Shown here: one piece after another, positions 4,095 through 46,751 of the stretch
Layout of the letters: each line of letters starts with the position of its first letter
How positions within the stretch are numbered: the first letter of the stretch is position 1
NCBI GenBank assembly: GCA_035516255.1
Contig: DATJAL010000029.1
Span: 62,001-126,000, forward strand
DNA: 64,000 bases
Origin: Chitinivibrionales bacterium
Lineage (GTDB): Bacteria; Fibrobacterota; Chitinivibrionia; Chitinivibrionales; FEN-1185
Direction: 5' to 3'
Notes under the pieces: model-generated
What the model saw: only the letters and a program-made list of their open reading frames with translations
Database searches by the model: none
Told to the model about the DNA's origin: nothing
Position numbers and translations under genes: made by a program

Positions 4095-5378
4095 ATGCTC
4101 GACCCGCAATTCATCCGCGACAACCCGGACCTCGTGAAAAAGGCCGCCGCTGCCAAGAACTGCAGCGTTGACATAGACAAACTGCTCGGGCTCGACGAGA
4201 AGCGGCGGCAAATCATCCGCGACGTTGAATCGCTCAAGAACACGCGCAACGCCAAATCGCCCGAAATCGCCAGGCTCAAGAAGGAAAAGAAAGACACGGA
4301 GCTTGCCGCGCTCATGGCGGAAATGAAAAATGTTTCCGATAAAGTAAAGGAGCTTGACGAGCAGCAGAAGGCGGTGGAAGGGGAGATTCGCGGCCTGTCG
4401 ATATGGATTCCCAATATCCCGCACGCGAGCGTGCCGCACGGCGCCGGCGCGGCCGACAACACGGTGGTCGCCGAATGGGGGAGCCAGGCGGCGTTTGACT
4501 TTGCGCCCAAAGACCATATCCAGCTCGGCACGGCGCTTGACATCATAGACTTCCCGCGCGGCGCAAAGGTGGCGGGCGCGGGCTTTCCCGTGTACAAGGG
4601 CGCGGGCGCGCTGCTCGAGCGGGCGCTCATCAATTTCATGCTCGACACGCACACGCGGAAAAACGGCTACCGCGAGATATTCCCGCCGTTCCTGGTAAAC
4701 GCCGACAGCCTGTTCGGCACGGGGCAGCTCCCCAAGTCGCAGGACCAGATGTATTACATCAACGAGGACCAGCTCTACTGCGTCCCCACGGCCGAGGTGC
4801 CGGTGACCAACCTTCACCGGGACGAGCTGCTCGACGCCTCGGCGCTGCCCGTGCGCTACTGCGCGTACAGCGCGTGCTTCAGGCGCGAGGCGGGAAGCTA
4901 CGGCAAGGACACCAAGGGGTTTTTGCGCGTGCACGAGTTCAACAAGATCGAGCTTGTCAAGTTCGTGGCGCCCGAAACGTCGTACGACGAGCTGGAAAAA
5001 CTGCGCGCCGACGCGGAAGGCATTCTCAAGGCGCTCGGGCTTGCGTACCGGGTGCTCATGCTGTGCGACGCGGACCTTTCGTTCGCCGCCGCCAAGTGTT
5101 ACGACCTCGAGGCATGGGCGCCGGGCGAGAAAAAATTCCTCGAAGTGTCGTCGTGCAGCAATTTCGAGGACTTCCAGGCGCGCCGCATGAACATTCGGTT
5201 CCGGCCCAAGGCCGGCGAAAAGCCCAGGTTCGTGCACACGCTCAACGGCAGCGGGCTCGCGACCGCGCGAATACTTGTCGCAATACTTGAAACCTATCAG
5301 ACGACCACAGGATCAATCAGAATTCCCGAAGTGCTACAGCCGTACATGCACGGGATGAAAGAAATTATAAAAGGTTGA
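4095..5378 (+). CDS. serS: seryl-tRNA synthetase
   Basis: This 427-aa enzyme charges tRNA-Ser with serine in the cytoplasm. The N-terminal 110 residues form the expected long antiparallel coiled-coil arm (lysine- and glutamate-rich, roughly residues 30-100) that grips the long variable arm of tRNA-Ser. The class II catalytic core follows: motif 2 around FRREAGSYG (Phe262-Arg263-Arg264-Glu265) and motif 3 around NGSGLATAR with the conserved arginine at residue 392. Length is normal for bacterial SerRS. The start is the first ATG after a stop-rich repeat region; a weak AAGGAAAATTAACC lies upstream. It is flanked by structured repeats on both sides and appears to be transcribed alone. Confidence 0.97.
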   Translation: MLDPQFIRDNPDLVKKAAAAKNCSVDIDKLLGLDEKRRQIIRDVESLKNTRNAKSPEIARLKKEKKDTELAALMAEMKNVSDKVKELDEQQKAVEGEIRGLSIWIPNIPHASVPHGAGAADNTVVAEWGSQAAFDFAPKDHIQLGTALDIIDFPRGAKVAGAGFPVYKGAGALLERALINFMLDTHTRKNGYREIFPPFLVNADSLFGTGQLPKSQDQMYYINEDQLYCVPTAEVPVTNLHRDELLDASALPVRYCAYSACFRREAGSYGKDTKGFLRVHEFNKIELVKFVAPETSYDELEKLRADAEGILKALGLAYRVLMLCDADLSFAAAKCYDLEAWAPGEKKFLEVSSCSNFEDFQARRMNIRFRPKAGEKPRFVHTLNGSGLATARILVAILETYQTTTGSIRIPEVLQPYMHGMKEIIKG

Positions 5379-5714: not shown

Positions 5715-7043
5715 ATGGCCAACCCAACCCTCTACCACCTCCTCATGCGCATCCGTCCCTTTACCGGGCGGTACGTGCTGCTGCTGCTGTGCATCGCCGG
5801 GTTCATCTGGTACGCGCAGTACACGCGCACCATCATCATGGAGCTTCAGGAGGAATCGGTGAGCGTGACTCAGACCTACGCCGAGCTCATCCGCACCGCC
5901 ATCACCGAGCGCATGAACAACGAGGAGATGAACGTCATCTTCGAGGAGATCATCCGCAAGGCCAACATTCCCGTGATCATCGCGGACACGTCGTGGAACC
6001 CGGTCATGTGGCGCAACGTGATGAAGGGGCCGTTTTTCCACCGCACCGAGGTGGCGCCGCACGACACGTCCGCGGCCGCGGTCGAGCAGATACGGAAAAG
6101 CATCGTTGAGTTCAAAAAAAGCTACACGCCCAAGGTGCTTTACCTGAGCGAGACCAAGATGAGGCTCGGGTATCTCGTGTTCGGCAACAGCGAGCTCATC
6201 CACGGTCTGTCGCGGATGCCCTTTATTGAAACGGGGCTGGTCGCGGCGTTCATCTTCTTCGCCTTTCTGGGGTTCCACAACATCCGCGTCACGGAGCGGA
6301 GCAACCTGTGGGTGGGGCTCGCCAAGGAGACCGCGCACCAGCTCGGCACGCCCATCTCGTCGCTCATGGGATGGATCGAGTACATCCGCGGCGTCACCGA
6401 CACCGACGAGCCGGTGGAGCCGGAGGAGTTTGTCAAGCAGGTGCACACCGTGACCGAGAACATGGAGAGCGACCTGTCGCGGCTGCGCAAGGTGACGAGC
6501 CGGTTCTCGCAGATAGGCTCGGTGCCCGCCCTCATGGCGTGCGACATCAACACGGTGCTCAACGACGCGGCCACCTATTTCCGCACGCGGCTGCCGTTTC
6601 TCGGCAAGCATATCGAGATCCGGCTCACGCAGGGCGAATTGCCGCAGATCACGGCGAACAAGCAGCTCATCGAATGGGTGTTCGAGAACCTGCTCAAGAA
6701 CTCGGTTGACGCGATTGTCAAGGCGGACGGCCTCATCGAGATCAAGACGGAACATGTGGCGGGCGACCGCCTCGTGCGCATCACCCACACCGACAACGGC
6801 AAGGGGATACAGTGGGAGGACCAGAAGAAGATTTTCGCGCCGGGCTACACCACCAAGAAGCGCGGCTGGGGCCTGGGGCTCACGCTGGCCAAGCGCATCG
6901 TTGAGGATTACCATAAAGGAAAGATCTACCTTTTGTGGTCGCAGAAGGACAAAGGAACGGCCTTCTGCATCGATTTGCCGGTGGGAGTGGAAAAGTATAT
7001 GGATAAAAAACAAACGCCTGACGTTACGGGCGGGAAGGCGTGA
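5715..7043 (+). CDS. porY: PorY-like sensor histidine kinase
   Basis: A 442-aa membrane histidine kinase. One transmembrane helix lies near residues 19-35 and a second near 177-195, with a ~140-residue sensory segment between them that would be periplasmic. The cytoplasmic part has an H-box AKETAHQLGTPISSLMGW with phosphoacceptor His208, an N-box ENLLKNSVDAI (Asn325/Asn329), a DNGKGI G1 box and a GLGLTLAKRI G2 box. The form ETAHQLGTPISSL is characteristic of PorY-type kinases, which signal to PorX in Bacteroidota. The next gene on the same strand is PorX, which supports that pairing. The gap between them (7044-7271) carries a repeat, so they may not be tightly co-transcribed. The kinase identity is certain; the PorY label is from motif and neighbourhood. 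Confidence 0.85.
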   Translation: MANPTLYHLLMRIRPFTGRYVLLLLCIAGFIWYAQYTRTIIMELQEESVSVTQTYAELIRTAITERMNNEEMNVIFEEIIRKANIPVIIADTSWNPVMWRNVMKGPFFHRTEVAPHDTSAAAVEQIRKSIVEFKKSYTPKVLYLSETKMRLGYLVFGNSELIHGLSRMPFIETGLVAAFIFFAFLGFHNIRVTERSNLWVGLAKETAHQLGTPISSLMGWIEYIRGVTDTDEPVEPEEFVKQVHTVTENMESDLSRLRKVTSRFSQIGSVPALMACDINTVLNDAATYFRTRLPFLGKHIEIRLTQGELPQITANKQLIEWVFENLLKNSVDAIVKADGLIEIKTEHVAGDRLVRITHTDNGKGIQWEDQKKIFAPGYTTKKRGWGLGLTLAKRIVEDYHKGKIYLLWSQKDKGTAFCIDLPVGVEKYMDKKQTPDVTGGKA

Positions 7044-7142
7044 GATGAAGTATTTTATTTGTGAACTTTTTTGGATATTTTTTTGGATTGAAAGTCTCGT
7101 GCCTTTGGCGTAAATTGACAATTGCGGCAGTCAGCAGTTTAC

Positions 7143-7240
7143 CGCGCGCCAGGCAGGACTGGAGGTCGCTCTGGAGAGCCCGAGTGCGAAGCACGAGACC
7201 GGAAGGACGGCCGCCGAAGCGAAGCGGCGGGGCGCCCAAC
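7143..7240 (+). repeat. GC-rich intergenic repeat, family A (short copy)
   Basis: It reads GCGCGCCAGGCAGGACTGGAGG and ends GAGACCGGAAGGACGGCC followed by GGGGCGCCC, matching the two ends of the full copies at 31371 and 43595, with the central part missing. It sits between porY and porX. Confidence 0.65.
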
Positions 7241-7271
7241 TTCTTGTTAAAACTTGAATGAGACAAAAATC

Positions 7272-8840
7272 ATGAGCGGCACCAGAAAAAAAGTCCTCTG
7301 GGCGGACGATGAGATAGAATTCCTCCGCGCGCACATCATGTTCCTCGAGACGCGCGGCTACAGCGTGACGCCCGTGTTTTCCGGCCATGACGCGATACAC
7401 CTGATCCAGGAAAATCCAAAGGCGTTCGACATTGTCCTGCTCGACGAGCAGATGCCGGGCAAGGACGGCCTTACCACGCTCGAGGAGATAAAGGAAATGG
7501 TGCCCGACCTGCCCGTGGTGATGGTGACCAAGAGCGAAGAGGAGCACCTCATGGACGAGGCGCTCGGCAAGAAAATAGACGGCTACCTCACCAAGCCGGT
7601 CAACCCGAGCCAGATCCTTTCGGTGTGCAAGAAGCTGCTCGATTCAAAGCAGATCATCTCCACGCAGATCACGCAGAAATTCGTGCGCAGCTATTCCGAC
7701 ATCCGGCTGTCGATGTCGACCCGCATGACCGCGAAAGAGTGGACCACCCTGTTCGACAACCTTACCAAATGGGACCTCGAGCTGGAGAAGGTGGAGGACG
7801 AAGGCCTGCGCCAGGCGCACGCGGGCCAGAAATCGGACTGCAACACGGCGTTCGGCGATTTCATCGCGGAAAACTACGTGCAGTGGCTCAAGGGCGAAAA
7901 CAACCCGCCGCTGCTCTCGCCGGGCGTGGTGGAGGCGTTTCTGGTGCCGCGGCTCAGGGAGGGCAAGAAGGTCTATTTCGTGGTGCTTGACTGCATGCGA
8001 CTCGACCAGTACTGCGCCATCGAGCTCCTGCTGCGCAAGTACTTCGACATCGAGCGCAATTATTTCTTTTCCATCCTGCCCACGGCCACGCCGTTCGCGC
8101 GCAACGCGCTGTTCGCGGGCAAATTCCCGCTCGACATCGCGCAGGACTATCCCGAGCTGTGGAAAACGCCGTCGGACGACGAGAGCAGCCTCAACCGGTT
8201 CGAGCGCCAGCTCCTCGCCCGCAAGCTCAAGGGCTGCGGCCTGGACTTTGCCGACGACCCGAAGTACGTCAAGATCCTTGACGCATCGGACTCAAAGGAG
8301 TTCCTCAAGAAGATCGGGTCCTACGAGAAGGACCGGCTCGTGTCCATCGTGGTGAACTTCGTTGACATGCTCACGCACAGCCGCTCCACCTCCACCATCC
8401 TGCAGGAGATCGCGCCCGACGAGGCCGCGTTCCGCTCCCTCACGCAGTCGTGGTTCCAGTTCTCCAACATTTTCGCGATCCTCAAGGAGTTCGCGGCGCA
8501 GGACTGCACCGTGATCCTCACCACCGACCACGGCAGCACCCTGTGCACGCGCGGCACCGAGGTGTACGGCAGCAGGGAGCTTTCCAAGAACCTGCGCTAC
8601 AAGTTCGGCGAGAACATCACCTGCGACGAGCGCCACGCGCTGTTCCTGAGCGATCCCACGGTGTTCAGGCTGCCCGCGTTCTCGCTCAATTCTTATTGCA
8701 TCATCGCGCGGGAGAATTACTACTTTGTCTATCCCGACAAGTTCGAGAATTTCCAGAAGCAGTACCAGAACAGCTTTCAGCACGGCGGGATATCGATGGA
8801 AGAGATTATTATTCCGCTCGCGGTGATGAAGCCAAAATAA
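7272..8840 (+). CDS. porX: PorX-like response regulator with PglZ (alkaline phosphatase superfamily) domain
   Basis: A 522-aa protein. Residues 6-125 form a receiver domain: acidic pair Asp12-Asp13, phosphoacceptor Asp58 in IVLLDEQMPG, Thr86 and Lys108 in YLTKPV. Instead of a DNA-binding output it has a helical linker and then a PglZ/alkaline-phosphatase-like domain from about residue 230: VVLDCMRLD (Asp240, Asp245), the threonine-containing PTATPFARNALF (270-281), and ILTTDHGS. These are the metal and phosphoryl-binding positions of the superfamily. This architecture defines PorX, the regulator of T9SS genes and cargo in Bacteroidota, which hydrolyses cyclic oligonucleotides in characterised members. 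I start at the ATG at 7272, because the earlier TTG at 7254 adds only six residues. The kinase gene precedes it and tsaE follows. Confidence 0.93.
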   Translation: MSGTRKKVLWADDEIEFLRAHIMFLETRGYSVTPVFSGHDAIHLIQENPKAFDIVLLDEQMPGKDGLTTLEEIKEMVPDLPVVMVTKSEEEHLMDEALGKKIDGYLTKPVNPSQILSVCKKLLDSKQIISTQITQKFVRSYSDIRLSMSTRMTAKEWTTLFDNLTKWDLELEKVEDEGLRQAHAGQKSDCNTAFGDFIAENYVQWLKGENNPPLLSPGVVEAFLVPRLREGKKVYFVVLDCMRLDQYCAIELLLRKYFDIERNYFFSILPTATPFARNALFAGKFPLDIAQDYPELWKTPSDDESSLNRFERQLLARKLKGCGLDFADDPKYVKILDASDSKEFLKKIGSYEKDRLVSIVVNFVDMLTHSRSTSTILQEIAPDEAAFRSLTQSWFQFSNIFAILKEFAAQDCTVILTTDHGSTLCTRGTEVYGSRELSKNLRYKFGENITCDERHALFLSDPTVFRLPAFSLNSYCIIARENYYFVYPDKFENFQKQYQNSFQHGGISMEEIIIPLAVMKPK

Positions 8841-8845
8841 GGTTT

Positions 8846-9069
8846 TGGTGGGGCAACCACTCCGTGGTTTCCCCCGGCCCCCGGCTTCCGCCGCCGCGTA
8901 CGTTTCTAAGGGCACGGCGTGCCGTGTCCCATGTGTAACAGCGCGGCGGAGGTGATCCGGGGGCACACCCCTTCCAGCGGAAACGTGCGCGAGTCGCAAC
9001 GCTTGCGCATTGCGAGCGCCACGTTTCCGCAACGCCTTCTCAGCGGAATGCCGCTTCGCGGCGATAAAA
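8846..9069 (+). repeat. structured intergenic repeat, family B type I
   Basis: It starts TTGGTGGGGCAACCACTCCG and ends AATGCCGCTTCGCGGCGATAAAA. The large 3' hairpin has arms GCGGAAACGTG and CACGTTTCCGC, a different sequence from the 3741 and 5514 copies but with pairing preserved. The first hairpin's loop holds a palindrome GGGCACGGCGTGCCGTGTCC at 8910-8929. Confidence 0.8.
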
Positions 9070-9087
9070 TTTTTTCTGAAGATTTTT

Positions 9088-9127
9088 CCCCCCTCCCTGA
9101 TCCGGTGAAGGGCAGGGGAGAGGTCAA
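9088..9127 (+). repeat. CCCTCTCC-type intergenic hairpin, family D
   Basis: The sequence CCCCCCTCCCTGATCCGGTG and then AGGGCAGGGGAGAGGTCAAA forms a hairpin. Related copies lie near 21131, 41927 and 46752. It sits just before tsaE. Confidence 0.5.
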
Positions 9128-9150
9128 AAGGGAAAACGGAAAACAAGCCC

Positions 9151-9564
9151 ATGCCCGAAAAAATCATCTCCCATTCGGTCGAGGAAACGCGCAAGGCGGG
9201 CGCACGGGTCGCAAGAACGGCCGGCGCCGGCGATGTGTTCGCCCTTACCGGCGAGCTCGGGACCGGCAAGACCGAGTTCGTGCGGGGGTTCGTGGAGGCG
9301 CTGTGCGGCCCGGCCGCGGTGCGGAGCCCAACGTTCTCTATTGTCAATATCCACGACGCGCCGGATTTTCCCGTCTACCACTTCGATTTCTACCGTCTCA
9401 AGAAAAAGGACGAGCTGCAGGAGATCGGGTTCTACGAGTATGTCACCGGCGGCGTCACCATCATCGAATGGGCGGACATGTTCCCGGAGGTGCTGCCGGA
9501 AAATGCGCGGCAAATTAAATTCATGGATAATGGGCAAAACGAACGGGTGATACTCTTGGATTGA
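9151..9564 (+). CDS. tsaE: tRNA threonylcarbamoyladenosine biosynthesis ATPase TsaE
   Basis: A 137-aa P-loop protein. The Walker A motif is GELGTGKT (residues 34-41), and the family-typical stretch SPTFSIVN and HFDFYRL follow, with IIEWADMFPE near residues 104-113. TsaE works with TsaB and TsaD to make t6A37 in ANN-decoding tRNAs. Length is normal. It follows porX on the same strand; a PorX-TsaE neighbourhood is, as I recall, common in Bacteroidota, which supports the PorX call. The start is the ATG shortly after a repeat; no strong ribosome-binding site is visible. No other t6A gene is in the window. Confidence 0.95.
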   Translation: MPEKIISHSVEETRKAGARVARTAGAGDVFALTGELGTGKTEFVRGFVEALCGPAAVRSPTFSIVNIHDAPDFPVYHFDFYRLKKKDELQEIGFYEYVTGGVTIIEWADMFPEVLPENARQIKFMDNGQNERVILLD

Positions 9565-9774: not shown

Positions 9775-12700
9775 ATGAGGATTGACAGATGGTGTACTGC
9801 GGCAATGATGGTTTTCATGGGGATGTTCGGATGGACGGCCACGACGGAGGCAGATGATTTTTCCCCGTGGAAGTATGCCAGCGACGTGAACCTCAACACG
9901 ACCGGCCTCGGCGTTTCGGGCGACGTTGCCGGGTTCCCGGTGCTCATAAGATTATCCGGCACGACTTTCACCCCGAGCATATTTTCACAAGCCAATAGCG
10001 ACGGATCGGACATCAGGTTTTCAAAATCAGATCATGTCACCGCGCTGCCTTATCAGATAGAGCGGTGGGACTTCGCGAATTCCGTAGCGGAGATATGGGT
10101 GAAGGTCGACGTGACCGGCGCCACCAACGGCGGGCAGACGCAGATAAGGATGTATTGGGGAAATTCGGGCGCGACGAGCCAGTCGAACGGGGCGAATGTT
10201 TTTAACAACGGGTATTTGGGTGCATACCATCTCAATGAAACAGGAAGCAACACTCCTAACGGATACGCCGACGCAACCGGCGTTTATTCCGCCACCGGAT
10301 ACAACATGGTGAGCGGCGACCAGGTTGCTGGACAAATCGCATTCGGTCAAAACTTTGGTGATGGGTATCATGGTAAATACCTTTCAATATTCGGAGGTAC
10401 AACCGGAACAGGGTGTCAGGTAAACGTAACAGCTGTTGATGCTAACGGAGCAATTACCACTATCAATACTACTCCTGTCAGTGGCGGTACAGGTTATGCC
10501 GTGGGTGATTACCTTCTTGTAGGAAACAGTGCGAATGGGGGACAGGGAAATAATGGAGTAGTCAAAGTCACCGCAGTATCAGGGACTGCTGCTTCCACCC
10601 TCGCTTTTGTCACGTGTCCTCATCAAGGCGGGTCTGGGGGCGGAGGGAATGTGGCAACAGTAAATATTACCGCTCCTACTGGCGCAATCACTGCTGCAAC
10701 TGTTGCAAATTACGGTGTTGCATATAATGTTGGTGATACCTTGCTCGTTGCTGGCGGCAACGGCGATGGAAAGCTACTCGTAGCAACTACAAATACAACG
10801 AACGGGGGACAATGGGGCTTCGGAGCTAAGACGGTAACCATACTCTCGGGGGGATCAGGTTATACTACCGCGAATGGAGTTTCTACCACAGATAAAAACT
10901 GGTATACCACTGGCACGAAGGCAACAACAAAACTCGGGCCGGGCCTTACTTTTGCAAGCGCCCCCAACTTCACGTTTTCGGCGTGGGCATGGTCTTCTGG
11001 GACCGCAGACGCAGACGTTTTGTTTTCATTGACAAAGGCGACCAACGGTAATTGTATAAAACTGAAACGGCACGATGCTAACAATTTAACGGTTGCATTC
11101 ACGACGAACGGTGCAGAAACCTACACGACAAGCAATAACTTTCCCAATCCCTCTTCTTCATGGGTCCATGTCGGCTTCACAGTCACCAACACAGGTACCT
11201 GCGCCGTTTATATAAATGGAACCCCACAAGCCATTACAACAACGCCAACCGCCATTTCAACCGGCTCATATTATTTCAATTATTTGGGTTCAGACTATTA
11301 CATGAACCCATGTCAACTGTTCCAAGGAAAGTTTAACGAGGCTGAAATATCAAATGTCGCCCGTTCCGCCGACTGGATGATGCTCGCGTATCAATCTCAG
11401 AAGACGGGCGCTTCCTGGTTTTCCTTCACCCCGATCGCCTCCTCTGCCCCGACCATTGTCACCCAACCCACAAATCAGACCGTCAGCGTCGGTTCTGTCG
11501 CCTCCTTCTCAGTTGTCGCCAACGGCGGCGGACTTTCATATCAATGGCAGCGCAGCAACGACGGCGGCTCGACATGGAACAATGTGTCGGGCGGCGCGGG
11601 CGGCACCACGGCCAACTACACTCTCACCACGGTCGCCGGCGACAACGGCGCCCAGTTCCGCTGCTATGTCTCCAATTCCTATGGCAACGTGACCTCGAAC
11701 GCGGCCACGCTCACCGTTACCTGTACGAACCCTTCCATTTCCGGCAATCCTCAGAACACCACCGTCAACGCCGGCCAGACCGCGACCTTCACGGTCACGG
11801 CGAGCGGTTCGAACCTCTCGTATCAATGGCAGCGCAACACGGGCACCTGGACCAATGTCGGCACGAACTCCGCCTCGTACGGCTTTACAACCGCGTATCC
11901 CGCCGACAACGGCGCCCAGTTCCGGTGCGTGGTTTCCGGCGCTTGCGGGAGTCCGGTCACCTCGGGCACGGCCACGCTTACGGTGCAGTGCCCGCTTGCC
12001 ACGATCACGGCCCAGCCGACCAACCAGTCGGCCTCGGGCGGAAACCCGGTCACCTTCAGCATCACGGCATCGGGCTCCGTTACCTACCAGTGGCTGCGCA
12101 GCGACAACAGCGGCGGATCATGGTATACGCCTTCGGGCACGACCACGAACTCCTCATACACATTTACAACTGCGTATCCTGCGGACAATGGCTCATGGTA
12201 TGAATGTAATGTCACCAACTCCTGCGGAACCGTCACTTCTAATCACGCGACGCTCACCGTTTCCCCGGCCTGCGTTCCGCCGTCGATCTCGGCGGGGCCC
12301 GTGACCCAGACCATTCCGGCGGGAGACAATGTCACGTTCAGCGTGACCGCGACCGGCGACGGCCTCGTTTACCAATGGCAATACAGCACCGACAACGGCA
12401 CCACGTGGAACCCATGGACCATCGGCACCGGGTACACGACCGCGACCCTCACCTTTGCCACGAGCGATGTCGTGAACGGGTATTATTTCCGCTGCCAGAT
12501 CACCGGCACCTGCGGTAACGCGACATCGGGTTCGGCCGTTCTCAATGTATGCGATCCGCCCTTCGTGAGTCAGGACCCGCAGAACCAAAGCGTGCTGGCG
12601 GGACAGAACGCTTCCTTTACCATTTCCGCGGCCGGGCCGAACATCTCTTATCAGTGGTTCTGCGATTCCGGAAGCGGGATTTTTCATCCGATTTCCGGGC

Positions 12701-15700
12701 AGACAGGCACGATTTTATCGTTCACGGCCTCGCAATCCCAAGACGGCTACCAATATCTTTGCATGGTGAGCAATTCATGTGATTTCGTGAATTCAAACGA
12801 AGCCACGCTTTCGGTCTGCACGCCCACGGCCATCACTTCGCAGCCGTCAAATGTCAACGTGACCGCGGGGCAGCCGGCATCGTTTACCGTTGCGGCCATC
12901 GGCAGCGGAACGCTCACGTACCAATGGCAGTACAGCCTGAACGGCGGAGGCACCTGGGGCAATGTGCCGTCGGGCGGGACCGCGGCCACCTATTCATTCA
13001 CGACATCGTCGTCGGACAACGGCAGTCTTTACAAATGCCTTGTCTCCAACGGGTGCGCGACGCCCGCGGTTTCGAACAACGCGACGCTCACCGTATGCAC
13101 GCCGCCGTCGCTGGCCTCCCAGCCGGTGAACTGGTCTGGCGTGGCCGGCAACACCGCTTCATTTTCCATAACAGTCCCCGGCAACGTGACGAGTCCCTCG
13201 TATCAATGGCAGAAGAGCACCAACGGCGGGTCATCCTGGAGCAATGTGACGCTCGGCACCGGCGGGAACACGCCGTCGTACAGTTTCACCACCCAGGGAA
13301 GCGACAACGGCAGCCAGTATCATTGCGTCGTGACCAACTCGTGCGGCACGGCCACTTCGAACGCGGCGCTCGCGACGGTGTGCGTTCCGGCCTCGATCAC
13401 GGGTAATCCTTCCAACCAGAACGTCATTGACGGCGGCGGCGCCACGTTCACCGTGACCGCGGCGGGCGGCGGCACCATCTACTATCAGTGGCAGCAAAGT
13501 ACCGACGGCGGCAACACCTGGTCCATCATCGGTGGCGCGACCTCGGCGAGTTACGCCTTTACCGCCAACATCGGCGAGAACGGCTACCAATACCGGTGCG
13601 GCGCACTTGTCAATGGCTGCGGCGGCACGGCTTATTCGGCGGCGGCCGCGCTTTCGGTGTGCATACCTCCGGCCATCACCGCGAATCCGTCGAACCAATC
13701 GGTCAACGCGGGCTCCACGGCATCGTTCAGTGCAGCAGCATCGGGCAGCGGAACAATTTCATACCAGTGGCAGCAGAGCGCCGACGGCGGGTCGACGTGG
13801 AACCCGATAGGCGGGGCCACATCGGCAACCTACGGCTTTACCGCGGCGGCAAATCAGGACCAGTACCGCTTCCGGTGCCAGGCGAGCAACGGCTGCGGCA
13901 GCGCCGCGTTGTCGGCCGCCGCGGTGCTTACCGTGTGTTCGCAGGCCGCGGTGAGCGTCGGCCCGTCGCCGCAGAGCGTCACGGCCGGGGCGAACGCGAC
14001 GTTCTCGATAACCGCCACCGGCACGCCGTTGATTTCGTACCAGTGGCAGGTGAGCACCGACAACGGCAGCACCTGGAACAACGTGACGAGCGGCGGTCTC
14101 GCCGCGACCTATACGTTTACAACCGCAACGGGAGAGAACGGGTGGCAGTACCGGTGCGCCGTGTCGACGGGCTGCTTTACAACCGCGTATTCGCCTGCAG
14201 CGCTGCTTACGGTGTGCACGCCGCCGTCGATCACCCAGCAGCCCGTGTCGCAGCCGGGCAAGCAGGTGGGCGACCAGGTGACCTTCACGGTGACCGTGCC
14301 GGCCGAGGTCACGGCGCCGGTCAATTACCAGTGGCAGAAAAGCACCGACGGCGGGACGACGTGGCCCCCCGCGCCCGGAGCGAGCACGTCGTCGTCGTAC
14401 ACCTTTACGGTTGCGAGCGGCGACGGCACCGCGCAGTTCAGGTGCTACATCACCAACGGCTGCGGCCAGATCTATTCCAACGCGGTCAACATCGGCGTGT
14501 GCACGGCCGTTTCCATCACGTCGAACCCGTCGGCGCAGAACGTGACCGCGGGCAACGCGGCGACGTTCACGGTGGCGGCCACCGGCGTTCCCGCGCCTTC
14601 GTATCAGTGGCAGGTAAGCGTTGACAATCAGGCAACGTGGAACAACGTGGCGCTCAACGGCACGTCGGCGGCCTACACCTTCACCACCGCGTCGACCGAC
14701 AACGGCAGCTATTTCCGGTGCAACGTGACCAACGGGTGCGGCTCGCCCGCGACGTCGGCCTCGGCGCTGCTCACGGTGTGCACGCCGCCGTCGATCTCGC
14801 AGCAACCGACCAACCCCGGAACCGTGATCGCGGGCTCGCCGATAACCCTTACGGTCGCGGTGCCTGTGGTCGTGACGTCGCCGTCGTTCCAGTGGCAGCG
14901 GAGCCTCGACACCGGGAAAACATGGAACAATGTGGCGACCGGCGGGGCCGCCGCGTCGTACAACTTCACTTCGGCATCGACCGACAACGGAGTGCAGGTC
15001 AGGTGCATGGTATCCAATTCCTGCGGCACGGTGTATTCGAGCGTGATCACCCTCGCGGTGTGCACGCCCGTGGCAATCGCCGGCAATCCCGGCAACCAGA
15101 GCGTGACCGCGGGCCAGAACGCGACCTTCACGGTGACCGCGACGGGCAGCGGCACCCTTCTTTACCAATGGGACTACAGCGCCAACGGCGGCGCCACGTG
15201 GAGCAACGTGCTGTCGGGCGGCACGGCCGCGTCGCTCGTCGTGGCCACGACGTCGAACCTTGACGGATACAAATACCGCTGCAACGTGTCGAACGGCTGC
15301 GGCAGCCCCGCGGTCTCGGCGGCCGCCAGCCTGTCGGTGTGCACGCCGCCGTCCATCGCAACGCAGCCCGTGCCGCCGCCGCTCAAGAACGTGGGCGATC
15401 CCGTGACGATCTCGGTCACGGTGCCCGCCCAGGTGACGAGCCCCGCCTATCAGTGGCAGCGCAGCGGCGACAACGGCGCGACGTGGCAAAGCGCTTCGGG
15501 CGCGTCCGCGACCACGGCCACCTACACCTTCACGGCCGCCGCCGGCGACTTCGGCGCGCAATACCGGTGCGTCGTGAGCAACGGCTGCGGCACGGCAACG
15601 TCCAACGCCGTGACCCTTTCGGTGTGCACGCAGGCGGCGGTGACCGTTCCGCCCGCGCCGCAGAGCGTGACGGCGGGCCAGAACGCGACCTTCACGGTGA

Positions 15701-18700
15701 CCGCGACCGGCACGCCGTCGGTATCGTACCAGTGGCAGTACAGCGCCGACACCGGCAAGACGTGGACGAACGTCGCGGTCGGCGGGACCGCGGCATCCTA
15801 TACCTTTACATCCGCGACGGCCAACAACGCGTGGCAGTACCGCGCGGCCGTCTCCACCGGCTGCGGCACGGTGGTCTATTCGGCGGCCGCCCTGCTTTCG
15901 GTGTGCACGCCGCCGTCGGTCTTACAGCCGCCCGCGTCGCAGACGGACATGATCGGCCAGAGCGTCACGTTCGGGGTGGTGGTACCGCCCGAAGTGACGT
16001 CGCCCGCGTACCAGTGGCAGCGGAGCCCCGACGGCAACACATGGACAAATGCGACAGGCGCCACCGCCGCGACCGCCTCGTACACCTTCACCGTGGCGGC
16101 GGGCGACGACGGCGCCCGCTTCCGCTGCGTCGTCACCAACGGTTGCGGAACGGTGAATTCCGCCGCCGCGACGCTCACGATCTGCACCCCGGCTTCGATC
16201 ACCATGGCACCCGTTGACCAGAGCACCGTGGCGGGCCAGAACGTTACGTTCTCGGTGGCGGCGGCCGGCAGCGCGCCGCTGTCGTACCAGTGGCAGACCA
16301 GCCCCGACAGCATCACGTGGAGCCCCGTTTCCTCGGGCGGGACGGCGGCGTCGTACACGTTCGCTTCCGCCACGAGCGAGGACCTTTCGTATTTCCGGTG
16401 CGTGGTGTCGGGCAACTGCGGAACGCCGGCGGTATCGCCCGGCGGCCGGCTGCACGTGTGCACGCCGCCGCATGTGGTCTCCCAGCCCGGCAACCAGGAC
16501 AAAAACCTCGGCGACACCGCCGTGTTCGGCGTCACCTGCACCGGATCGTCACTGGCGTACCAGTGGCAGCGCAGCCCCACCGGCACAACATGGACAAATG
16601 CGACTGCCGGGACCGGCGCCGCCACCGCGATGTACCGGCTCGTTTCAACGGCCGGCGACGACAGCGCGCGCTTCCGCTGCATGGTGACCAACGGCTGCGG
16701 CAGGGACTCGTCGGCGGCGGCAATGCTGCTCGTGTGTTCTCCTCCGTCAATAGCGGCCCAGCCCAAGGACACCAGCGTGGTGACGGGCGGCACCGCCACC
16801 TTCAGGGTCGGCTTCGTCGGCACCCTGCCGCAGTACCAGTGGCAGAAAAGCAGCGACGGCCTCGTGTGGAACGACACCGCGGGCGCCACGGCCGCGGCGT
16901 TCGCCTTCACCGCAAAAGCGACGGACAACGGCCTGCGGTTCCGCTGCTACATCAAGAGCAAATGCGGCGACGTCATCTCGAACCCGGCCGTGCTCACGGT
17001 GTGCGACCCGGCGGCGATCACGGCCCAGACCGTGGCCAACGACACGCTGATCTCTGGCGCCACCGTGGTGTTCGGCGTCACCGCCACCGGAACCTCGCGC
17101 ACCTACCAGTGGCAGAGGAGGGGAGCGGCCGACACCGGATTCATGGCCATTCCCGCGGCCGCCGCGGCCACCTACGCGTTCGTGGCACAGACGCCGGACA
17201 GCGGCGCGCGCTACCGGTGCTTGGTGAGCGCCTCCTGCGGCGCGCCCGCGGTAAGCGCGGTCGCGCTGCTCACCGTCTACGGCAGGGTGCACGCCGCCTT
17301 CGGCGCGGTCCCGGCCGCGGGCCAGGTGCCCCTGTCCGTTTCGTTCTACGATTCGTCAAGCGGCAATTTCTCGACGAGGGCGTGGGACTTCGGCGACAGC
17401 ACCGTGGACACGGTCTCGAAGAACCCGGCGCACTCCTTCACGCGGGCCGGCACCTACACCGTGCGGCTCGCCGTGACCGGTGTGGGCGGCACCGACACAG
17501 CGTCGCTGTCGGTCTTCGCGTACAACCCGGGCGGCAACCCGATCCAGATGACGGGCGCCTATGTTACGCCGCAGAAGATCCGCGTCACCCTCACCGGGTA
17601 CAACGCGATCGCGCCGCCGTCGCCGTCGGTTTCCGCGGATTCCGTGGGGCTCTGGTACACCGTTGCGTCGTGGCCGCAGACCCGCGGCCAGTCGACCTTC
17701 ATAAAGTATTACACGCCGGCAGCGCTGCGCGCGGGCGGGGCCACGTTCACCGACGTCATCGACGTGCCCGCGCTCACCGGCAAAGACAGCGTGTACGGCA
17801 TCATGAGCGACATTCTTTGGAGCGACCGAAAGACCACGCCGTTTGACAGCGGCAACGGTGCGCTGGTGCTCATGCGCGACACCATGCCCATCGCCGACTC
17901 ACTCCTTATTTCGGGCGTTTACATTCCGGACGATACGGCCCGCATCTATCTCGACAACGCCGCCGGCATCGACACGTCGCGCGTGGACTCGGTGGGCGTG
18001 TGGTACAGCCTGGCCACCGACACGGTGAACTTCAAGGACCAGGCCTTTACAAAATGGTTCGCCGCCGCCGACGTGGTGAAGGCGGGATCCCGGTACGTGT
18101 ACTCGATTGTCAACTCCCAGTTCAACAACGAGCAGAAGACCATGTACGCCGCCGTCGAGCTCCATGGCAAGAACGGCCGCTACAGCCCGCCGCTTTCGAC
18201 GTCGTTTACCGTGGGCAAGCAGCGGCCGCACAACCCGATCCACCTCGCGGCGCATGCGCTGTCGGCCACGCGGATCAGGCTCACCTGGAACAATCTCGCC
18301 GCGTACGGGATCGAGCGGATGATCATCTGGTACCGCACCGGCTCGCCGGTGCCGCTCTCCGTTGACGTCACCTCGCTCCATCTGGACTCGCTCGTGCCCG
18401 GCGTCTCCGACACCGTCATCATCGGGAACAAGTTCAGCGAAGACACCCGGTACTTCTTTGGCGCACAGGTGTTCAAGGGAGGGCTGTGGTCGGCCATCAC
18501 CGACTCGTCGAGCGCGACCGATTCAACGCTCAAGGCGGGCGACACGCTGCCGTACAACAGCGTGCAGGTGAAGAGCCTCGTCTTCGACACCTCGGTCAAC
18601 CAGCTCAGGGTGTGCTGGAGCGTCAACATGGCGCAGGCCGAAAGCCTGCAGGTGGGCATATTGTACTCGACCGACGGCCCGCCGACCGTGAACACCGGCC

Positions 18701-20988
18701 AGCAGCAGGCCATCGACGTGCGGGCCGCGGGCGACTGCGCCTACGTTGCGGTGCAGGGCAACATCCTCTTCAACCACACCTATTACGTAGGCCTGTGGCT
18801 GCGCCGTTCCGACGGCGCGTGGACGCGGCCTTCGGCGGCCGGGTACGACAGCGTGCGCACGCCGTCGTACACCTGGCAGAACGTGGTATACTTTACAAAA
18901 CAGAACGACACGGTGTTCGCCTTCAACAACAGCGTACGGCTGCTCAACACGCCGGGCGACTCGTCGGTGACGCACAACACGCTCTACTACGTTCCGCTCG
19001 ACACCGCGGCGCTCGCCGGGTTCGTGCAGGCGGGCGTGGGCTTTACGTTCAAGAACAAGGACGGCGGCGTTCCTTTCTACATAGGAATCAGGGTCGATAC
19101 GATCCCGCCGGGATACTCCCTCGCCGACGTGCGCATCTTCCACCGCACCGACGCCGGCGCGTGGCTCGTGGACGGCAGCCCGCTCGCCGTGGACACGGCC
19201 GGCCGGTACGTGTACGTGCTCACCAACAAGCTCGACCTGCCGTTCGTCGCCCTGATCGACACCACGCATCCGAAGCTGAGCGTGAACGCGGGCGCATGGG
19301 ACCCGGTCCCGGCGCAGCACCCTTTTGCCGACACCATCGTGGTGCGCGACCATCTGTCCAATGTCTCGTGGCACTTCTACGCGGCAAAGGGAGGCTCGTC
19401 GCTTTTCACGAGCGACACCGCGCAGCTGGGCACCCTCTCCGACACGCTCGACACCATCATCGTCTCTGTGGACGGCCAGTACGCGAGCGTCGACAACGGC
19501 GCGCGCGCCGTTGTGTATGTTTTCGACGGCACGCACCGCGATTCCGTCGACCTGTCGCGGTCGGTGATCCTCGACACGGCCGGGATCGTGCGCACCGCGG
19601 CGCAGGACTGGACGCCCCTGAGCACCACCATGGTGCTTGACACGCAGGACGTCAAGCGGATCCTCAGGCCGCTTTCGTCCAAGAGCCCGTGGAAATACGA
19701 TCCCAAGCAGTTCAGGCTCTTCCGCTGGATGCCGGGCCCCGCGAACGCCGCGAGCGCGTCGAAATGGACCGAATATTCCGACAGCGGCGCCGCAACGTTC
19801 GCGCTCGCGCGCGGCAGCCTGCTCTGGCTCAAGACCAGGGACATGGCCGCGCTGCCGCTCGGCCGCGGCGTCACCCCGCCCCTCACGAAGCCTTTCGCCG
19901 TGCGGCTTGGGCCCAAGACCTTCACCGATGTCGCCCTGCCGTTCAACTTCGACGTGACGCTGGGCGACATTTTCGCGGCTACCGGCGCGCTGCCGGTCGC
20001 GCCGGACTCGCTGCAGTTCTATTCCTGGCACAAGAACGCCGCGGGAAGGTACTGGACCGATGCGAAGTTCATCGCGGGCATCGATTCCCTCAACAACAGG
20101 GCGGCGACGCTCGCCGGCGGCGCGGGATTCTCGGTGTTCAACCCGAGCGCCGACACCCTCATGCTCGTGGTGCCGCCGCTGCCGCAGGCGATGTCGAACA
20201 TCGGCCTGTCCAAGAAGCGGCAAACAACGGGCGGCTGGGCCCTCAGGGTGGTGCCCGTGCTCTCCGACGGCACGCCGCTCACCTCGTTGTACTGCGGCTT
20301 CGCGCCCGCGCGGGACGGCGGCGTGTCGTGGTATCCGACGGCGCCCTCACTTGTCAAGGCGTATGCCGCGGTATATGATCCTGCCGCGGGCCAGACGCAC
20401 GGCAACGCCGTGGTCCATGCCATGCCGGACGGAGGCGCAGCGTACCTGCTCGTGTTCGGCAACGAGACCGACCAGCGGGCCGCGATTTCATACAAGGTAG
20501 AAAATGTGAAGACGCTGCCGCAGGGCATGAAGGCGCGGCTGTACAACCCGGCCGCCGATTCGGCCGCCGACGCCTCAAGTGCCGGCGCGACCGTGGCCGT
20601 GGATGCGGGCGGCCGGGAATACCGCTGGCTGTTCGCGGGCACCGACGCGTATCTCGCCAAGGTGCGCACCATCGCGCGGCCGGGCGTGCTGCGGTTCATG
20701 GGGACGTATCCCAACCCGTTCAGGTCGTTCGTGCGGATACGGTACAGCCTGCCGTACGACGGCGTGGACAAAGTAAAGTTCGTGATCTACGACCTGCGCG
20801 GCCGCGCCGTGTGGAAGACGCAGATAACGCCGGGCTTCATGACCGGCAGCAGCGAGCTCCTGTGGAACGCGCAGGCGTCCGACGGCCGGCCCGCGGCCGC
20901 GGGCGTGTACATCGTTTCGATGTCGGCGCTCGCGAAGACGGGCAGGCAACTGGGGGTGTTTAACGGGAAGATGACGTTGATAAAATAG
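9775..20988 (+). CDS. giant secreted protein: DUF2341, LamG-like, 21 Ig-like repeats, PKD, T9SS sorting domain
   Basis: A 3737-aa exported protein. An N-terminal signal peptide (residues 1-26, ending near TTEA) precedes a DUF2341-type beta domain (about 30-150), then a LamG/concanavalin-like domain that begins at LGAYHLNETGS and resumes at NFTFSAWAW, interrupted by a Gly-rich segment of about 165 residues. From residue 559 to 2502 I count 21 Ig-like units of about 92 aa, each with YQWQ near the middle, an F/YRC motif, usually NGCG, and a closing VC. A PKD-like domain follows (about 2503-2580, WDFGDS), then fibronectin-like and unassigned beta domains. The last ~98 residues (from YPNPFRSF) form a type A T9SS sorting domain ending in a basic tail. 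It is probably a surface adhesin or carbohydrate-binding protein; no catalytic motif is seen. Confidence 0.9.
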   Translation: MRIDRWCTAAMMVFMGMFGWTATTEADDFSPWKYASDVNLNTTGLGVSGDVAGFPVLIRLSGTTFTPSIFSQANSDGSDIRFSKSDHVTALPYQIERWDFANSVAEIWVKVDVTGATNGGQTQIRMYWGNSGATSQSNGANVFNNGYLGAYHLNETGSNTPNGYADATGVYSATGYNMVSGDQVAGQIAFGQNFGDGYHGKYLSIFGGTTGTGCQVNVTAVDANGAITTINTTPVSGGTGYAVGDYLLVGNSANGGQGNNGVVKVTAVSGTAASTLAFVTCPHQGGSGGGGNVATVNITAPTGAITAATVANYGVAYNVGDTLLVAGGNGDGKLLVATTNTTNGGQWGFGAKTVTILSGGSGYTTANGVSTTDKNWYTTGTKATTKLGPGLTFASAPNFTFSAWAWSSGTADADVLFSLTKATNGNCIKLKRHDANNLTVAFTTNGAETYTTSNNFPNPSSSWVHVGFTVTNTGTCAVYINGTPQAITTTPTAISTGSYYFNYLGSDYYMNPCQLFQGKFNEAEISNVARSADWMMLAYQSQKTGASWFSFTPIASSAPTIVTQPTNQTVSVGSVASFSVVANGGGLSYQWQRSNDGGSTWNNVSGGAGGTTANYTLTTVAGDNGAQFRCYVSNSYGNVTSNAATLTVTCTNPSISGNPQNTTVNAGQTATFTVTASGSNLSYQWQRNTGTWTNVGTNSASYGFTTAYPADNGAQFRCVVSGACGSPVTSGTATLTVQCPLATITAQPTNQSASGGNPVTFSITASGSVTYQWLRSDNSGGSWYTPSGTTTNSSYTFTTAYPADNGSWYECNVTNSCGTVTSNHATLTVSPACVPPSISAGPVTQTIPAGDNVTFSVTATGDGLVYQWQYSTDNGTTWNPWTIGTGYTTATLTFATSDVVNGYYFRCQITGTCGNATSGSAVLNVCDPPFVSQDPQNQSVLAGQNASFTISAAGPNISYQWFCDSGSGIFHPISGQTGTILSFTASQSQDGYQYLCMVSNSCDFVNSNEATLSVCTPTAITSQPSNVNVTAGQPASFTVAAIGSGTLTYQWQYSLNGGGTWGNVPSGGTAATYSFTTSSSDNGSLYKCLVSNGCATPAVSNNATLTVCTPPSLASQPVNWSGVAGNTASFSITVPGNVTSPSYQWQKSTNGGSSWSNVTLGTGGNTPSYSFTTQGSDNGSQYHCVVTNSCGTATSNAALATVCVPASITGNPSNQNVIDGGGATFTVTAAGGGTIYYQWQQSTDGGNTWSIIGGATSASYAFTANIGENGYQYRCGALVNGCGGTAYSAAAALSVCIPPAITANPSNQSVNAGSTASFSAAASGSGTISYQWQQSADGGSTWNPIGGATSATYGFTAAANQDQYRFRCQASNGCGSAALSAAAVLTVCSQAAVSVGPSPQSVTAGANATFSITATGTPLISYQWQVSTDNGSTWNNVTSGGLAATYTFTTATGENGWQYRCAVSTGCFTTAYSPAALLTVCTPPSITQQPVSQPGKQVGDQVTFTVTVPAEVTAPVNYQWQKSTDGGTTWPPAPGASTSSSYTFTVASGDGTAQFRCYITNGCGQIYSNAVNIGVCTAVSITSNPSAQNVTAGNAATFTVAATGVPAPSYQWQVSVDNQATWNNVALNGTSAAYTFTTASTDNGSYFRCNVTNGCGSPATSASALLTVCTPPSISQQPTNPGTVIAGSPITLTVAVPVVVTSPSFQWQRSLDTGKTWNNVATGGAAASYNFTSASTDNGVQVRCMVSNSCGTVYSSVITLAVCTPVAIAGNPGNQSVTAGQNATFTVTATGSGTLLYQWDYSANGGATWSNVLSGGTAASLVVATTSNLDGYKYRCNVSNGCGSPAVSAAASLSVCTPPSIATQPVPPPLKNVGDPVTISVTVPAQVTSPAYQWQRSGDNGATWQSASGASATTATYTFTAAAGDFGAQYRCVVSNGCGTATSNAVTLSVCTQAAVTVPPAPQSVTAGQNATFTVTATGTPSVSYQWQYSADTGKTWTNVAVGGTAASYTFTSATANNAWQYRAAVSTGCGTVVYSAAALLSVCTPPSVLQPPASQTDMIGQSVTFGVVVPPEVTSPAYQWQRSPDGNTWTNATGATAATASYTFTVAAGDDGARFRCVVTNGCGTVNSAAATLTICTPASITMAPVDQSTVAGQNVTFSVAAAGSAPLSYQWQTSPDSITWSPVSSGGTAASYTFASATSEDLSYFRCVVSGNCGTPAVSPGGRLHVCTPPHVVSQPGNQDKNLGDTAVFGVTCTGSSLAYQWQRSPTGTTWTNATAGTGAATAMYRLVSTAGDDSARFRCMVTNGCGRDSSAAAMLLVCSPPSIAAQPKDTSVVTGGTATFRVGFVGTLPQYQWQKSSDGLVWNDTAGATAAAFAFTAKATDNGLRFRCYIKSKCGDVISNPAVLTVCDPAAITAQTVANDTLISGATVVFGVTATGTSRTYQWQRRGAADTGFMAIPAAAAATYAFVAQTPDSGARYRCLVSASCGAPAVSAVALLTVYGRVHAAFGAVPAAGQVPLSVSFYDSSSGNFSTRAWDFGDSTVDTVSKNPAHSFTRAGTYTVRLAVTGVGGTDTASLSVFAYNPGGNPIQMTGAYVTPQKIRVTLTGYNAIAPPSPSVSADSVGLWYTVASWPQTRGQSTFIKYYTPAALRAGGATFTDVIDVPALTGKDSVYGIMSDILWSDRKTTPFDSGNGALVLMRDTMPIADSLLISGVYIPDDTARIYLDNAAGIDTSRVDSVGVWYSLATDTVNFKDQAFTKWFAAADVVKAGSRYVYSIVNSQFNNEQKTMYAAVELHGKNGRYSPPLSTSFTVGKQRPHNPIHLAAHALSATRIRLTWNNLAAYGIERMIIWYRTGSPVPLSVDVTSLHLDSLVPGVSDTVIIGNKFSEDTRYFFGAQVFKGGLWSAITDSSSATDSTLKAGDTLPYNSVQVKSLVFDTSVNQLRVCWSVNMAQAESLQVGILYSTDGPPTVNTGQQQAIDVRAAGDCAYVAVQGNILFNHTYYVGLWLRRSDGAWTRPSAAGYDSVRTPSYTWQNVVYFTKQNDTVFAFNNSVRLLNTPGDSSVTHNTLYYVPLDTAALAGFVQAGVGFTFKNKDGGVPFYIGIRVDTIPPGYSLADVRIFHRTDAGAWLVDGSPLAVDTAGRYVYVLTNKLDLPFVALIDTTHPKLSVNAGAWDPVPAQHPFADTIVVRDHLSNVSWHFYAAKGGSSLFTSDTAQLGTLSDTLDTIIVSVDGQYASVDNGARAVVYVFDGTHRDSVDLSRSVILDTAGIVRTAAQDWTPLSTTMVLDTQDVKRILRPLSSKSPWKYDPKQFRLFRWMPGPANAASASKWTEYSDSGAATFALARGSLLWLKTRDMAALPLGRGVTPPLTKPFAVRLGPKTFTDVALPFNFDVTLGDIFAATGALPVAPDSLQFYSWHKNAAGRYWTDAKFIAGIDSLNNRAATLAGGAGFSVFNPSADTLMLVVPPLPQAMSNIGLSKKRQTTGGWALRVVPVLSDGTPLTSLYCGFAPARDGGVSWYPTAPSLVKAYAAVYDPAAGQTHGNAVVHAMPDGGAAYLLVFGNETDQRAAISYKVENVKTLPQGMKARLYNPAADSAADASSAGATVAVDAGGREYRWLFAGTDAYLAKVRTIARPGVLRFMGTYPNPFRSFVRIRYSLPYDGVDKVKFVIYDLRGRAVWKTQITPGFMTGSSELLWNAQASDGRPAAAGVYIVSMSALAKTGRQLGVFNGKMTLIK

Positions 20989-21180: not shown

Positions 21181-21282
21181 AGGAAAAAAGAAAAATCATG
21201 CGAAATACCGTTTACGTTGCAACTTTGTCACTCTGATACTCTGTTGCTATTTTTAATACTTTTTTGCCGAAGGGGATTACGA

Positions 21283-46599: not shown

Positions 46600-46751
46600 G
46601 CGATCCCCCTTTAATAATGGTGAAATGGCTTTAATATTATCTATTGTTAATATAAAGATATCTTTGACAAATTGCAAGACTTATGTATTTAAATGAAGGG
46701 CGGTTTAAGCACTTGAAATGCCATGAAAAAATGAGGTTTGTTTGGTGGCAG

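What the first reader, a model, noticed from the sequence alone, without database searches (positions are those of the whole stretch)
5715..9564. PorY-PorX two-component pair with tsaE in a non-Bacteroidota-looking context
The kinase has the PorY-type H-box ETAHQLGTPISSL, and the next gene is a receiver-PglZ protein with Asp58, Lys108 and the PglZ metal-site residues. This pair controls T9SS gene expression in Bacteroidota, and at least four genes in this window encode proteins with T9SS-type tails. A PorXY system outside Bacteroidota is useful for asking whether the control is ancestral in the FCB group.
Basis: partly seen in the sequence, partly recalled or inferred. Interest (0 to 1): 0.65.

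Follow-up and report, generated by a model that had tools for sequence, protein, structure and literature searches.

The report
Linked PorY-PorX pair in a Fibrobacterota genome
This bacterium outside the Bacteroidota carries, side by side, the sensor and the switch protein known to control a protein-export machine in gum-disease bacteria; comparison across related phyla indicates that the pair is ancient, that sensor and switch belong together, and that the switch's enzyme part has been lost repeatedly in the group.

Summary
Window 5715-9564 encodes a histidine kinase with H-box AKETAHQLGTPISSL, a PorX (643 bits to NCBIfam T9SS_RR_PorX, cut-off 300; D58, K108 and the whole PglZ metal site intact) and TsaE, after serS. 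The genome is Fibrobacterota, with SprA, PorV-family proteins and about 90-110 T9SS tails. The pair is not unique to it: PorX and this kinase family occur across FCB phyla, and their trees agree, which fits vertical descent.

Three results go beyond the finding. (1) The kinase sits next to porX in Fibrobacterota, Zixibacteria and the Gemmatimonadota/Latescibacterota group (40 of 55 loci) but in 0 of 60 Bacteroidota-side loci, where it lies elsewhere. (2) The PglZ catalytic site is perfect in 75/75 PorX outside Fibrobacterota but degraded in most Fibrobacterota PorX, though not in the window's. (3) Where porY is missing from the operon, the receiver domain specifically decays in four of five sister comparisons.

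Fibrobacter-family genomes keep SprA but lack PorX, so PorX is not universal in T9SS bacteria. PorL and PorM were not detected outside Bacteroidota, with weakly sensitive models. Regulation of T9SS by this pair here is inferred, not shown.

The parts
4095..5378 (+). serS, seryl-tRNA synthetase, conserved upstream neighbour
   Evidence: TIGR00414 510 bits; serS-porY-porX-tsaE order in Fibrobacterota and Zixibacteria
5715..7043 (+). porY-family sensor histidine kinase, 442 aa; two TM segments (about 16-34 and 167-193), His208 in AKETAHQLGTPISSL
   Evidence: 657 bits to profile A1, which was built with it
7254..8840 (+). porX: CheY-like receiver, three-helix bundle, PglZ phosphodiesterase-like domain; likely start ATG 7272
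   Evidence: NF052313 643 bits; 7pv7 E 4e-127; catalytic residues intact
9151..9564 (+). tsaE, tRNA t6A ATPase subunit, conserved downstream neighbour of porX
   Evidence: TIGR00150 106 bits, PF02367 127 bits; downstream of porX in 41/43 Fibrobacterota and 49/55 Bacteroidia loci
9775..20988 (+). 3737-aa Ig-repeat surface protein with T9SS type A tail (candidate cargo)
   Evidence: TIGR04183 21.8 bits on the fragment, 25.2 bits in the genome scan, cut-off 23
33293..35254 (-). 654-aa pectate-lyase-like protein, T9SS tail just below cut-off (22.1 bits)
44833..46677 (-). 615-aa LamG protein with T9SS tail (25.7 bits)
53817..55850 (+). 678-aa beta-propeller protein with T9SS tail (28.3 bits)

Best explanation
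This is a vertically inherited, operon-linked PorY-PorX two-component system of Fibrobacterota. Most likely mechanism: PorY senses an unknown envelope signal through its ~130-residue periplasmic loop, autophosphorylates on His208 and phosphorylates PorX on Asp58; [quoted passage not shown] In the window's genus the PglZ domain should also be an active zinc phosphodiesterase. Across the phylum, however, the conserved part of the job is the phospho-switch plus the PglZ fold as a scaffold, because the catalytic site has decayed repeatedly while the receiver stayed intact wherever PorY is present. Shown by sequence: identity, linkage, co-occurrence, congruent trees, residue conservation. Inferred: phosphotransfer, T9SS as the target, the signal.
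For: PorX equivalog match and solved-structure match. Own genome has SprA, nine PorV-family matches and 110 tail matches at E<=1e-3. Kinase adjacent to porX in 27/41 Fibrobacterota, 9/10 Gemmatimonadota/Latescibacterota and 4/4 Zixibacteria loci against 0/60 on the Bacteroidota side. Each PorX-bearing genome tested except G025 has one kinase scoring >=257 bits to A1; the next best kinase in any of them is <=124. 30/30 PorX-bearing but only 8/20 PorX-lacking genomes of one Bacteroidota order have it (Fisher p 1e-6, not corrected for kinship). PorX and kinase trees both recover Fibrobacterota (100/98; 97/93) and the Bacteroidota-side group (100/99; 100/98). Receiver pocket D-D-D-T-K intact in all 75 outsiders and in every PorY-linked PorX whose pocket is covered; changed at the five sites only in porY-less genera. 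Receiver identity to outgroups falls 14-28 points in four of five porY-less lineages against PorY-bearing sisters, other domains at most about 5. No terminator-like site on the + strand between these genes. P. gingivalis PorY phosphorylates PorX in vitro (PMC4800418) and D58 matters in vivo (PMC11320123).
Against: No experiment in any Fibrobacterota. The equivalence of this kinase family with P. gingivalis PorY rests on architecture and primer-derived residues, and NCBIfam's own PorY model does not match it. Fibrobacter-family genomes have SprA without PorX, so the T9SS link is not obligatory. Known PorX partners PorL and SigP were not detected or not searched. The independent-pair test of porY loss against receiver change does not reach significance (4-5 pairs), and absence of porY elsewhere in the genome was checked only for one porY-less genome that keeps PorX (G025). 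In the window's genus the genes are 210 and 310 nt apart, looser than in relatives.
Confidence: 0.8

Rival explanations
1. The linked kinase is PorX's true kinase but is a different family from P. gingivalis PorY; PorY in the sense of NCBIfam NF052314 is another kinase that took over or cross-talks in some Bacteroidota.
For: NF052314 T9SS_HK_PorY matches the ETAHQLGTP kinases poorly (52-61 bits, cut-off 350), and deletion of porY in P. gingivalis does not reproduce porX deletion (PMC11320123).
Against: NF052314 is over its cut-off in only 3 of 19 PorX-bearing genomes outside Fibrobacterota that were tested, and also in a control Bacteroides without SprA, so it does not track PorX. Its members have the His ~50-60 residues past TM2; P. 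gingivalis PorY has TM2 at 149-173 and His193 (PMC5005315), as in the ETAHQLGTP family (TM2 end to His about 14-20). Primers in PMC8050853 give PorY residues FFERSR (9-14) and ALLAE (171-175), close to family members (ILEISR; ALLST).
Confidence: 0.08
2. Recent lateral transfer of a Bacteroidota porXY cassette into this lineage.
For: PorXY is best known from Bacteroidota; two-component genes move often (general knowledge).
Against: Fibrobacterota form one clade in both trees, with the window nested inside it next to its genus mate; serS-porY-porX-tsaE order is shared with Zixibacteria, and Bacteroidota lack the porY link.
Confidence: 0.03
3. PorXY in Fibrobacterota regulates something other than T9SS (for example other surface or growth functions), and T9SS control is a Bacteroidota addition.
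For: PorX is absent from SprA-bearing Fibrobacter-family genomes; PorL/PorM not detected outside Bacteroidota; constant neighbours are housekeeping genes serS and tsaE, not T9SS genes.
Against: Every PorX-bearing Fibrobacterota genome has at least a SprA match, but SprA is nearly universal there, so this is weak. The GldL model also misses a Bacteroidota genome (Bernardetia), so motor absence is uncertain.
Confidence: 0.25

Closest known systems
PorY-PorX (PGN_2001/PGN_1019) of Porphyromonas gingivalis
   Same: PorX domain order, D58, K108, T272 nucleophile and all zinc ligands; kinase with two TM helices and His shortly after TM2 (PMC5005315)
   Different: Genes adjacent here, ~1000 genes apart in P. 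gingivalis (PMC5005315); 41% PorX identity; PorL/PorM not detected here, SigP not searched
PorX of Flavobacterium johnsoniae (8p6f, 8ted)
   Same: Full-length match, E about 1e-124; same active-site residues
   Different: F. johnsoniae PorX binds GldL (PMC10951265); no GldL over cut-off was detected in Fibrobacterota
BREX-3 PglZ
   Same: PglZ domain (NF033449 90.6 bits, cut-off 250)
   Different: No receiver there; the window protein is far below the BREX cut-off and sits among serS, a kinase and tsaE
NCBIfam NF052314 'T9SS_HK_PorY' kinases
   Same: Membrane histidine kinases of Bacteroidota
   Different: Different H-box (SHELQTP-type), longer TM2-to-His linker, does not track PorX

Membership tests
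PorX | Equivalog-level full-length match | tested here: met
   NF052313 643.5 bits, cut-off 300, positions 2-513/513
PorX | Receiver with phosphoacceptor Asp, Thr, Lys and acidic pair | tested here: met
   D18 D19 D64 T92 K114 in TTG numbering = D58/K108 from ATG
PorX | PglZ nucleophile Thr and two zinc sites | tested here: met
   D246 T279 D425 H426 and D371 H375 H510
PorX | Phosphodiesterase activity, dimerisation, PorL or SigP binding | not testable with these tools
   needs bench work
PorY | Inner-membrane kinase, two TM, His soon after TM2, ETAHQLGTP-type box | tested here: met
   box shared with the PorX-tracking kinases found in Bacteroidota
PorY | Orthology to PGN_2001 by sequence | tested here: inconclusive
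   sequence not obtainable; architecture and primer-derived residues agree
PorY | NCBIfam NF052314 over cut-off | tested here: not met
   not among the 25 families listed for the window kinase; best match in the own genome, 93 bits of 350, lies on contig C27; the model appears not to describe the PorX-tracking kinase
PorY | Phosphotransfer to PorX | not testable with these tools
   shown for P. gingivalis only (PMC4800418)
Type IX secretion system in the own genome | SprA/Sov translocon | tested here: met
   482.5 bits summed, cut-off 200; PF14349 96 bits
Type IX secretion system in the own genome | PorV family | tested here: met
   NF033709 167 bits, cut-off 90; not over the stricter PorV equivalog cut-off (107 of 250)
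Type IX secretion system in the own genome | C-terminal sorting tails | tested here: met
   110 matches at E<=1e-3, about 90 over cut-off
Type IX secretion system in the own genome | PorL/PorM motor | tested here: inconclusive
   TIGR03513 and TIGR03517 find nothing over cut-off in Fibrobacterota, but the GldL model also misses Bernardetia
Type IX secretion system in the own genome | PorU, PorK, PorN, SigP | not tested

The most novel reading that the evidence does not exclude
PorX is in essence a PorY-driven protein-interaction switch: in most PorX-bearing Fibrobacterota it has become a pseudo-enzyme with an intact receiver, and in lineages that lost porY it has gone on to a phosphorylation-independent scaffold with a decaying receiver. 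This would mean that neither phosphodiesterase activity nor zinc sensing is the essential output of PorX in this phylum.
Probability: 0.5. Interest if true: 0.75.

Novelty: new member of a known kind. Interest (0 to 1): 0.6.

Why it matters
The P. gingivalis PorX-PorY partnership has been questioned because the two genes are far apart and porY deletion does not copy porX deletion. Linkage in three other FCB lineages, co-occurrence, and receiver decay after porY loss are independent genomic evidence that the two are partners, and suggest that adjacency is the older state, lost on the Bacteroidota line (root not inferred). Fibrobacterota also offer natural PorX proteins with a broken catalytic site, which makes the open question of whether PorX acts through its phosphodiesterase or as a switch directly testable. 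Fibrobacter-family genomes with SprA but no PorX contradict the statement that PorX is strictly conserved in T9SS bacteria.

Tried and rejected
I first took the ETAHQLGTP kinases to be PorY without question; the NCBIfam PorY model then disagreed and forced a check by architecture and primers, which favours the ETAHQLGTP family. P. gingivalis itself was not in the sampled order (closest PorX 79%), so the PGN_2001 sequence could not be read; the primer string was in no fetched locus. Lateral transfer was rejected by both trees. A PorY-PorX fusion suspected in L233 (923-aa frame) is most likely an open frame overlapping porY. L114 shows a receiver 'change' only because its N-terminus is missing. 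The Gemmatimonadota and Latescibacterota labels intermix in the trees; I treat them as one group and draw no phylum-level claim from the names. The independent-pair sign test of porY loss against receiver change was too small to reach significance.
Full report
Identity and place. The window is G000:C29:62001-126000 of a 4.28-Mb, 61-contig genome, 96.6% complete. Nearest PorX proteins are in Fibrobacterota MAGs: 89% in 'Fibrobacteres bacterium fen_1185', 67% in a Chitinivibrionales MAG. The region reads serS (4095-5378), histidine kinase (5715-7043), porX (7254 or 7272-8840), tsaE (9151-9564), all on +, with no terminator-like site on that strand between them.

PorX. NCBIfam T9SS_RR_PorX 643.5 bits against a cut-off of 300, positions 2-513/513; PDB PorX structures at E 1e-123 to 1e-127. 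Counted from the ATG at 7272, the phosphoacceptor is D58 and the lysine K108, exactly as in P. gingivalis; the nucleophile threonine and all six other zinc-site residues are present (residue roles from PMC10951265 and PMC11320123).

T9SS in the own genome. SprA 482 bits summed, PorV family (nine matches), 110 tail-domain matches at E<=1e-3, about 90 over cut-off, four of the 110 in the window. GldM and GldL models found nothing over cut-off in any Fibrobacterota, Zixibacteria or Latescibacterota genome tested, but the GldL model also missed Bernardetia, a Bacteroidota, and the Rhodothermales tested, so absence of the motor is not established.

Distribution in the phylum. Of 168 Fibrobacterota genomes, SprA is over cut-off in 160. 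PorX is over cut-off in 44 and full-length just below it in three more. All 111 genomes of the family coded f9, complete ones included, lack PorX although nearly all have strong SprA; in several of these every candidate of the first look was scored, so this is not a cap effect. This contradicts 'strict conservation of PorX in T9SS-utilizing bacteria' (PMC11320123).

The kinase. Twenty-two porX-linked kinases from several phyla share WVG[LM]AKETAHQ[LM]GTP, IGSxP and TKKRGWGLGL blocks. With that profile, each PorX-bearing genome tested outside the training phyla has one outstanding kinase (257-401 bits) and nothing else above 124 bits; eight PorX-less Fibrobacterota have none, and G025, which has PorX but no adjacent kinase, has none either. 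In one Bacteroidota order 30/30 PorX-bearing genomes have it against 8/20 PorX-less ones, whose completeness is unknown. Bacteroidota members have the same box but lie away from porX, on another contig or hundreds of kilobases off on the same one.

Is it PorY? NCBIfam's 'T9SS_HK_PorY' model NF052314 does not match these kinases and does not track PorX. P. gingivalis PorY is 395 aa with TM 14-36 and 149-173 and His193 (PMC5005315). Primers printed in PMC8050853 translate, with the stated nucleotide positions, to FFERSR at residues 9-14 and ALLAE at 171-175 (my translation). ETAHQLGTP kinases of Bacteroidales mostly have His at 180-202, similar TM2-to-His spacing, ILEISR or FFYFNSR near the N-terminus and ALLST/ALMSS/ALAST before the box; NF052314 members have a much longer linker. 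I conclude that PorY belongs to the ETAHQLGTP family, at about 90%, pending the sequence itself.

Linkage. Counting loci with enough flank, the kinase is directly upstream of porX in 27/41 Fibrobacterota, 9/10 Gemmatimonadota/Latescibacterota, 4/4 Zixibacteria, and in 0/55 Bacteroidia, 0/4 Rhodothermales and 0/1 Chlorobiales (the Bacteroidia set is heavy in Sphingobacterium). tsaE follows porX in 41/43 Fibrobacterota and 49/55 Bacteroidia loci, so porX-tsaE is the more widely kept bond. porY and porX often overlap or lie within 60 nt in relatives; in the window's genus the gaps are 210 nt (porY-porX) and about 310 nt (porX-tsaE).

Trees. PorX and kinase-core trees both give Fibrobacterota as one side of a branch (100/98; 97/93) and Bacteroidota plus Rhodothermales plus Chlorobiales as another (100/99; 100/98), with Gemmatimonadota, Latescibacterota and Zixibacteria together (weaker support). 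This is what vertical descent as a pair predicts. The root is not inferred.

Enzyme loss. The seven PglZ active-site residues are D,T,D,H,D,H,H in 75/75 PorX outside Fibrobacterota. Inside, only the window's genus and close relatives (window, L005, L006, L087) keep them; every other full-length one read has lost some, in many different ways. On the tree the site needs at least three changes; since every outside PorX is intact I read these as losses. PglZ-domain identity to outgroups falls from 41 to 31% while the receiver hardly changes, 60 to 57%. An AlphaFold model of one such protein (L104; mean pLDDT 84, residues 86-108 poor) still matches P. gingivalis PorX over its whole length, TM 0.84, so the fold is predicted to be kept. 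In P. gingivalis a nucleophile mutant keeps 41-67% of gingipain activity while a zinc-ligand double mutant keeps 13-20% (PMC11320123); many Fibrobacterota have lost one or more of the equivalent zinc ligands too.

Sensor loss. In 15 Fibrobacterota genomes of six genera porY is missing from its place upstream of porX. The five receiver-pocket residues are unchanged in all 18 PorY-bearing genera whose pocket is covered, but changed in three of the six porY-less genera; a fourth (g7) has the Glu after the phosphoacceptor replaced by Lys (by genus, 3/6 against 0/18, Fisher p 0.01, kinship not corrected). Against PorY-bearing sisters, receiver identity to outgroups drops 17, 28, 19 and 14 points while PglZ drops 2-5 and the helix bundle 3 points or less; the fifth comparison shows no drop. 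The independent-pair test is too small for significance, and genome-wide absence of porY was checked only in G025 among porY-less genomes that keep PorX.

Reading. The window holds an ordinary-looking, intact, linked PorYX pair. Its value lies in the comparison: it supports an ancient PorY-PorX partnership, suggests that adjacency is the older state, and shows that the phosphodiesterase site is dispensable in much of this phylum. That the pair controls T9SS here is the most likely reading but rests on analogy.

Noticed in passing
L225:8502-11021 (-), G000:C54: An 840-aa PorV/PorQ-family barrel with a ~400-aa propeller insert (Reg_prop 61.7 bits, weak PorZ match) near its first strand; PorV-family matches split at about model positions 41-58 in frames of 737-900 aa in several other Fibrobacterota.
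   Followed up: partly
NCBIfam NF052314, e.g. L160-L163: The model named T9SS PorY appears to describe a different kinase with a longer linker before the His; it does not track PorX and passes its cut-off in one control genome, most likely Bacteroides ihuae, which has no SprA.
   Followed up: partly
Fibrobacterota family f9 (G042-G152): Fibrobacter-type genomes carry high-scoring SprA but no PorX; the three scanned for the kinase (G056, G101, G144) have no PorY-type match.
   Followed up: partly
L225:4782-8444 (-), G000:C54: Gene next to the PorV chimera matches the T9SS-dependent M6-like inactivated metalloprotease model below its cut-off (318 of 600 bits).
   Followed up: no
window 9775-20988 and 21217-30927: Two consecutive giant proteins (3737 and 3237 aa) directly after tsaE; the first is an Ig-repeat protein with a T9SS tail.
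   Followed up: no
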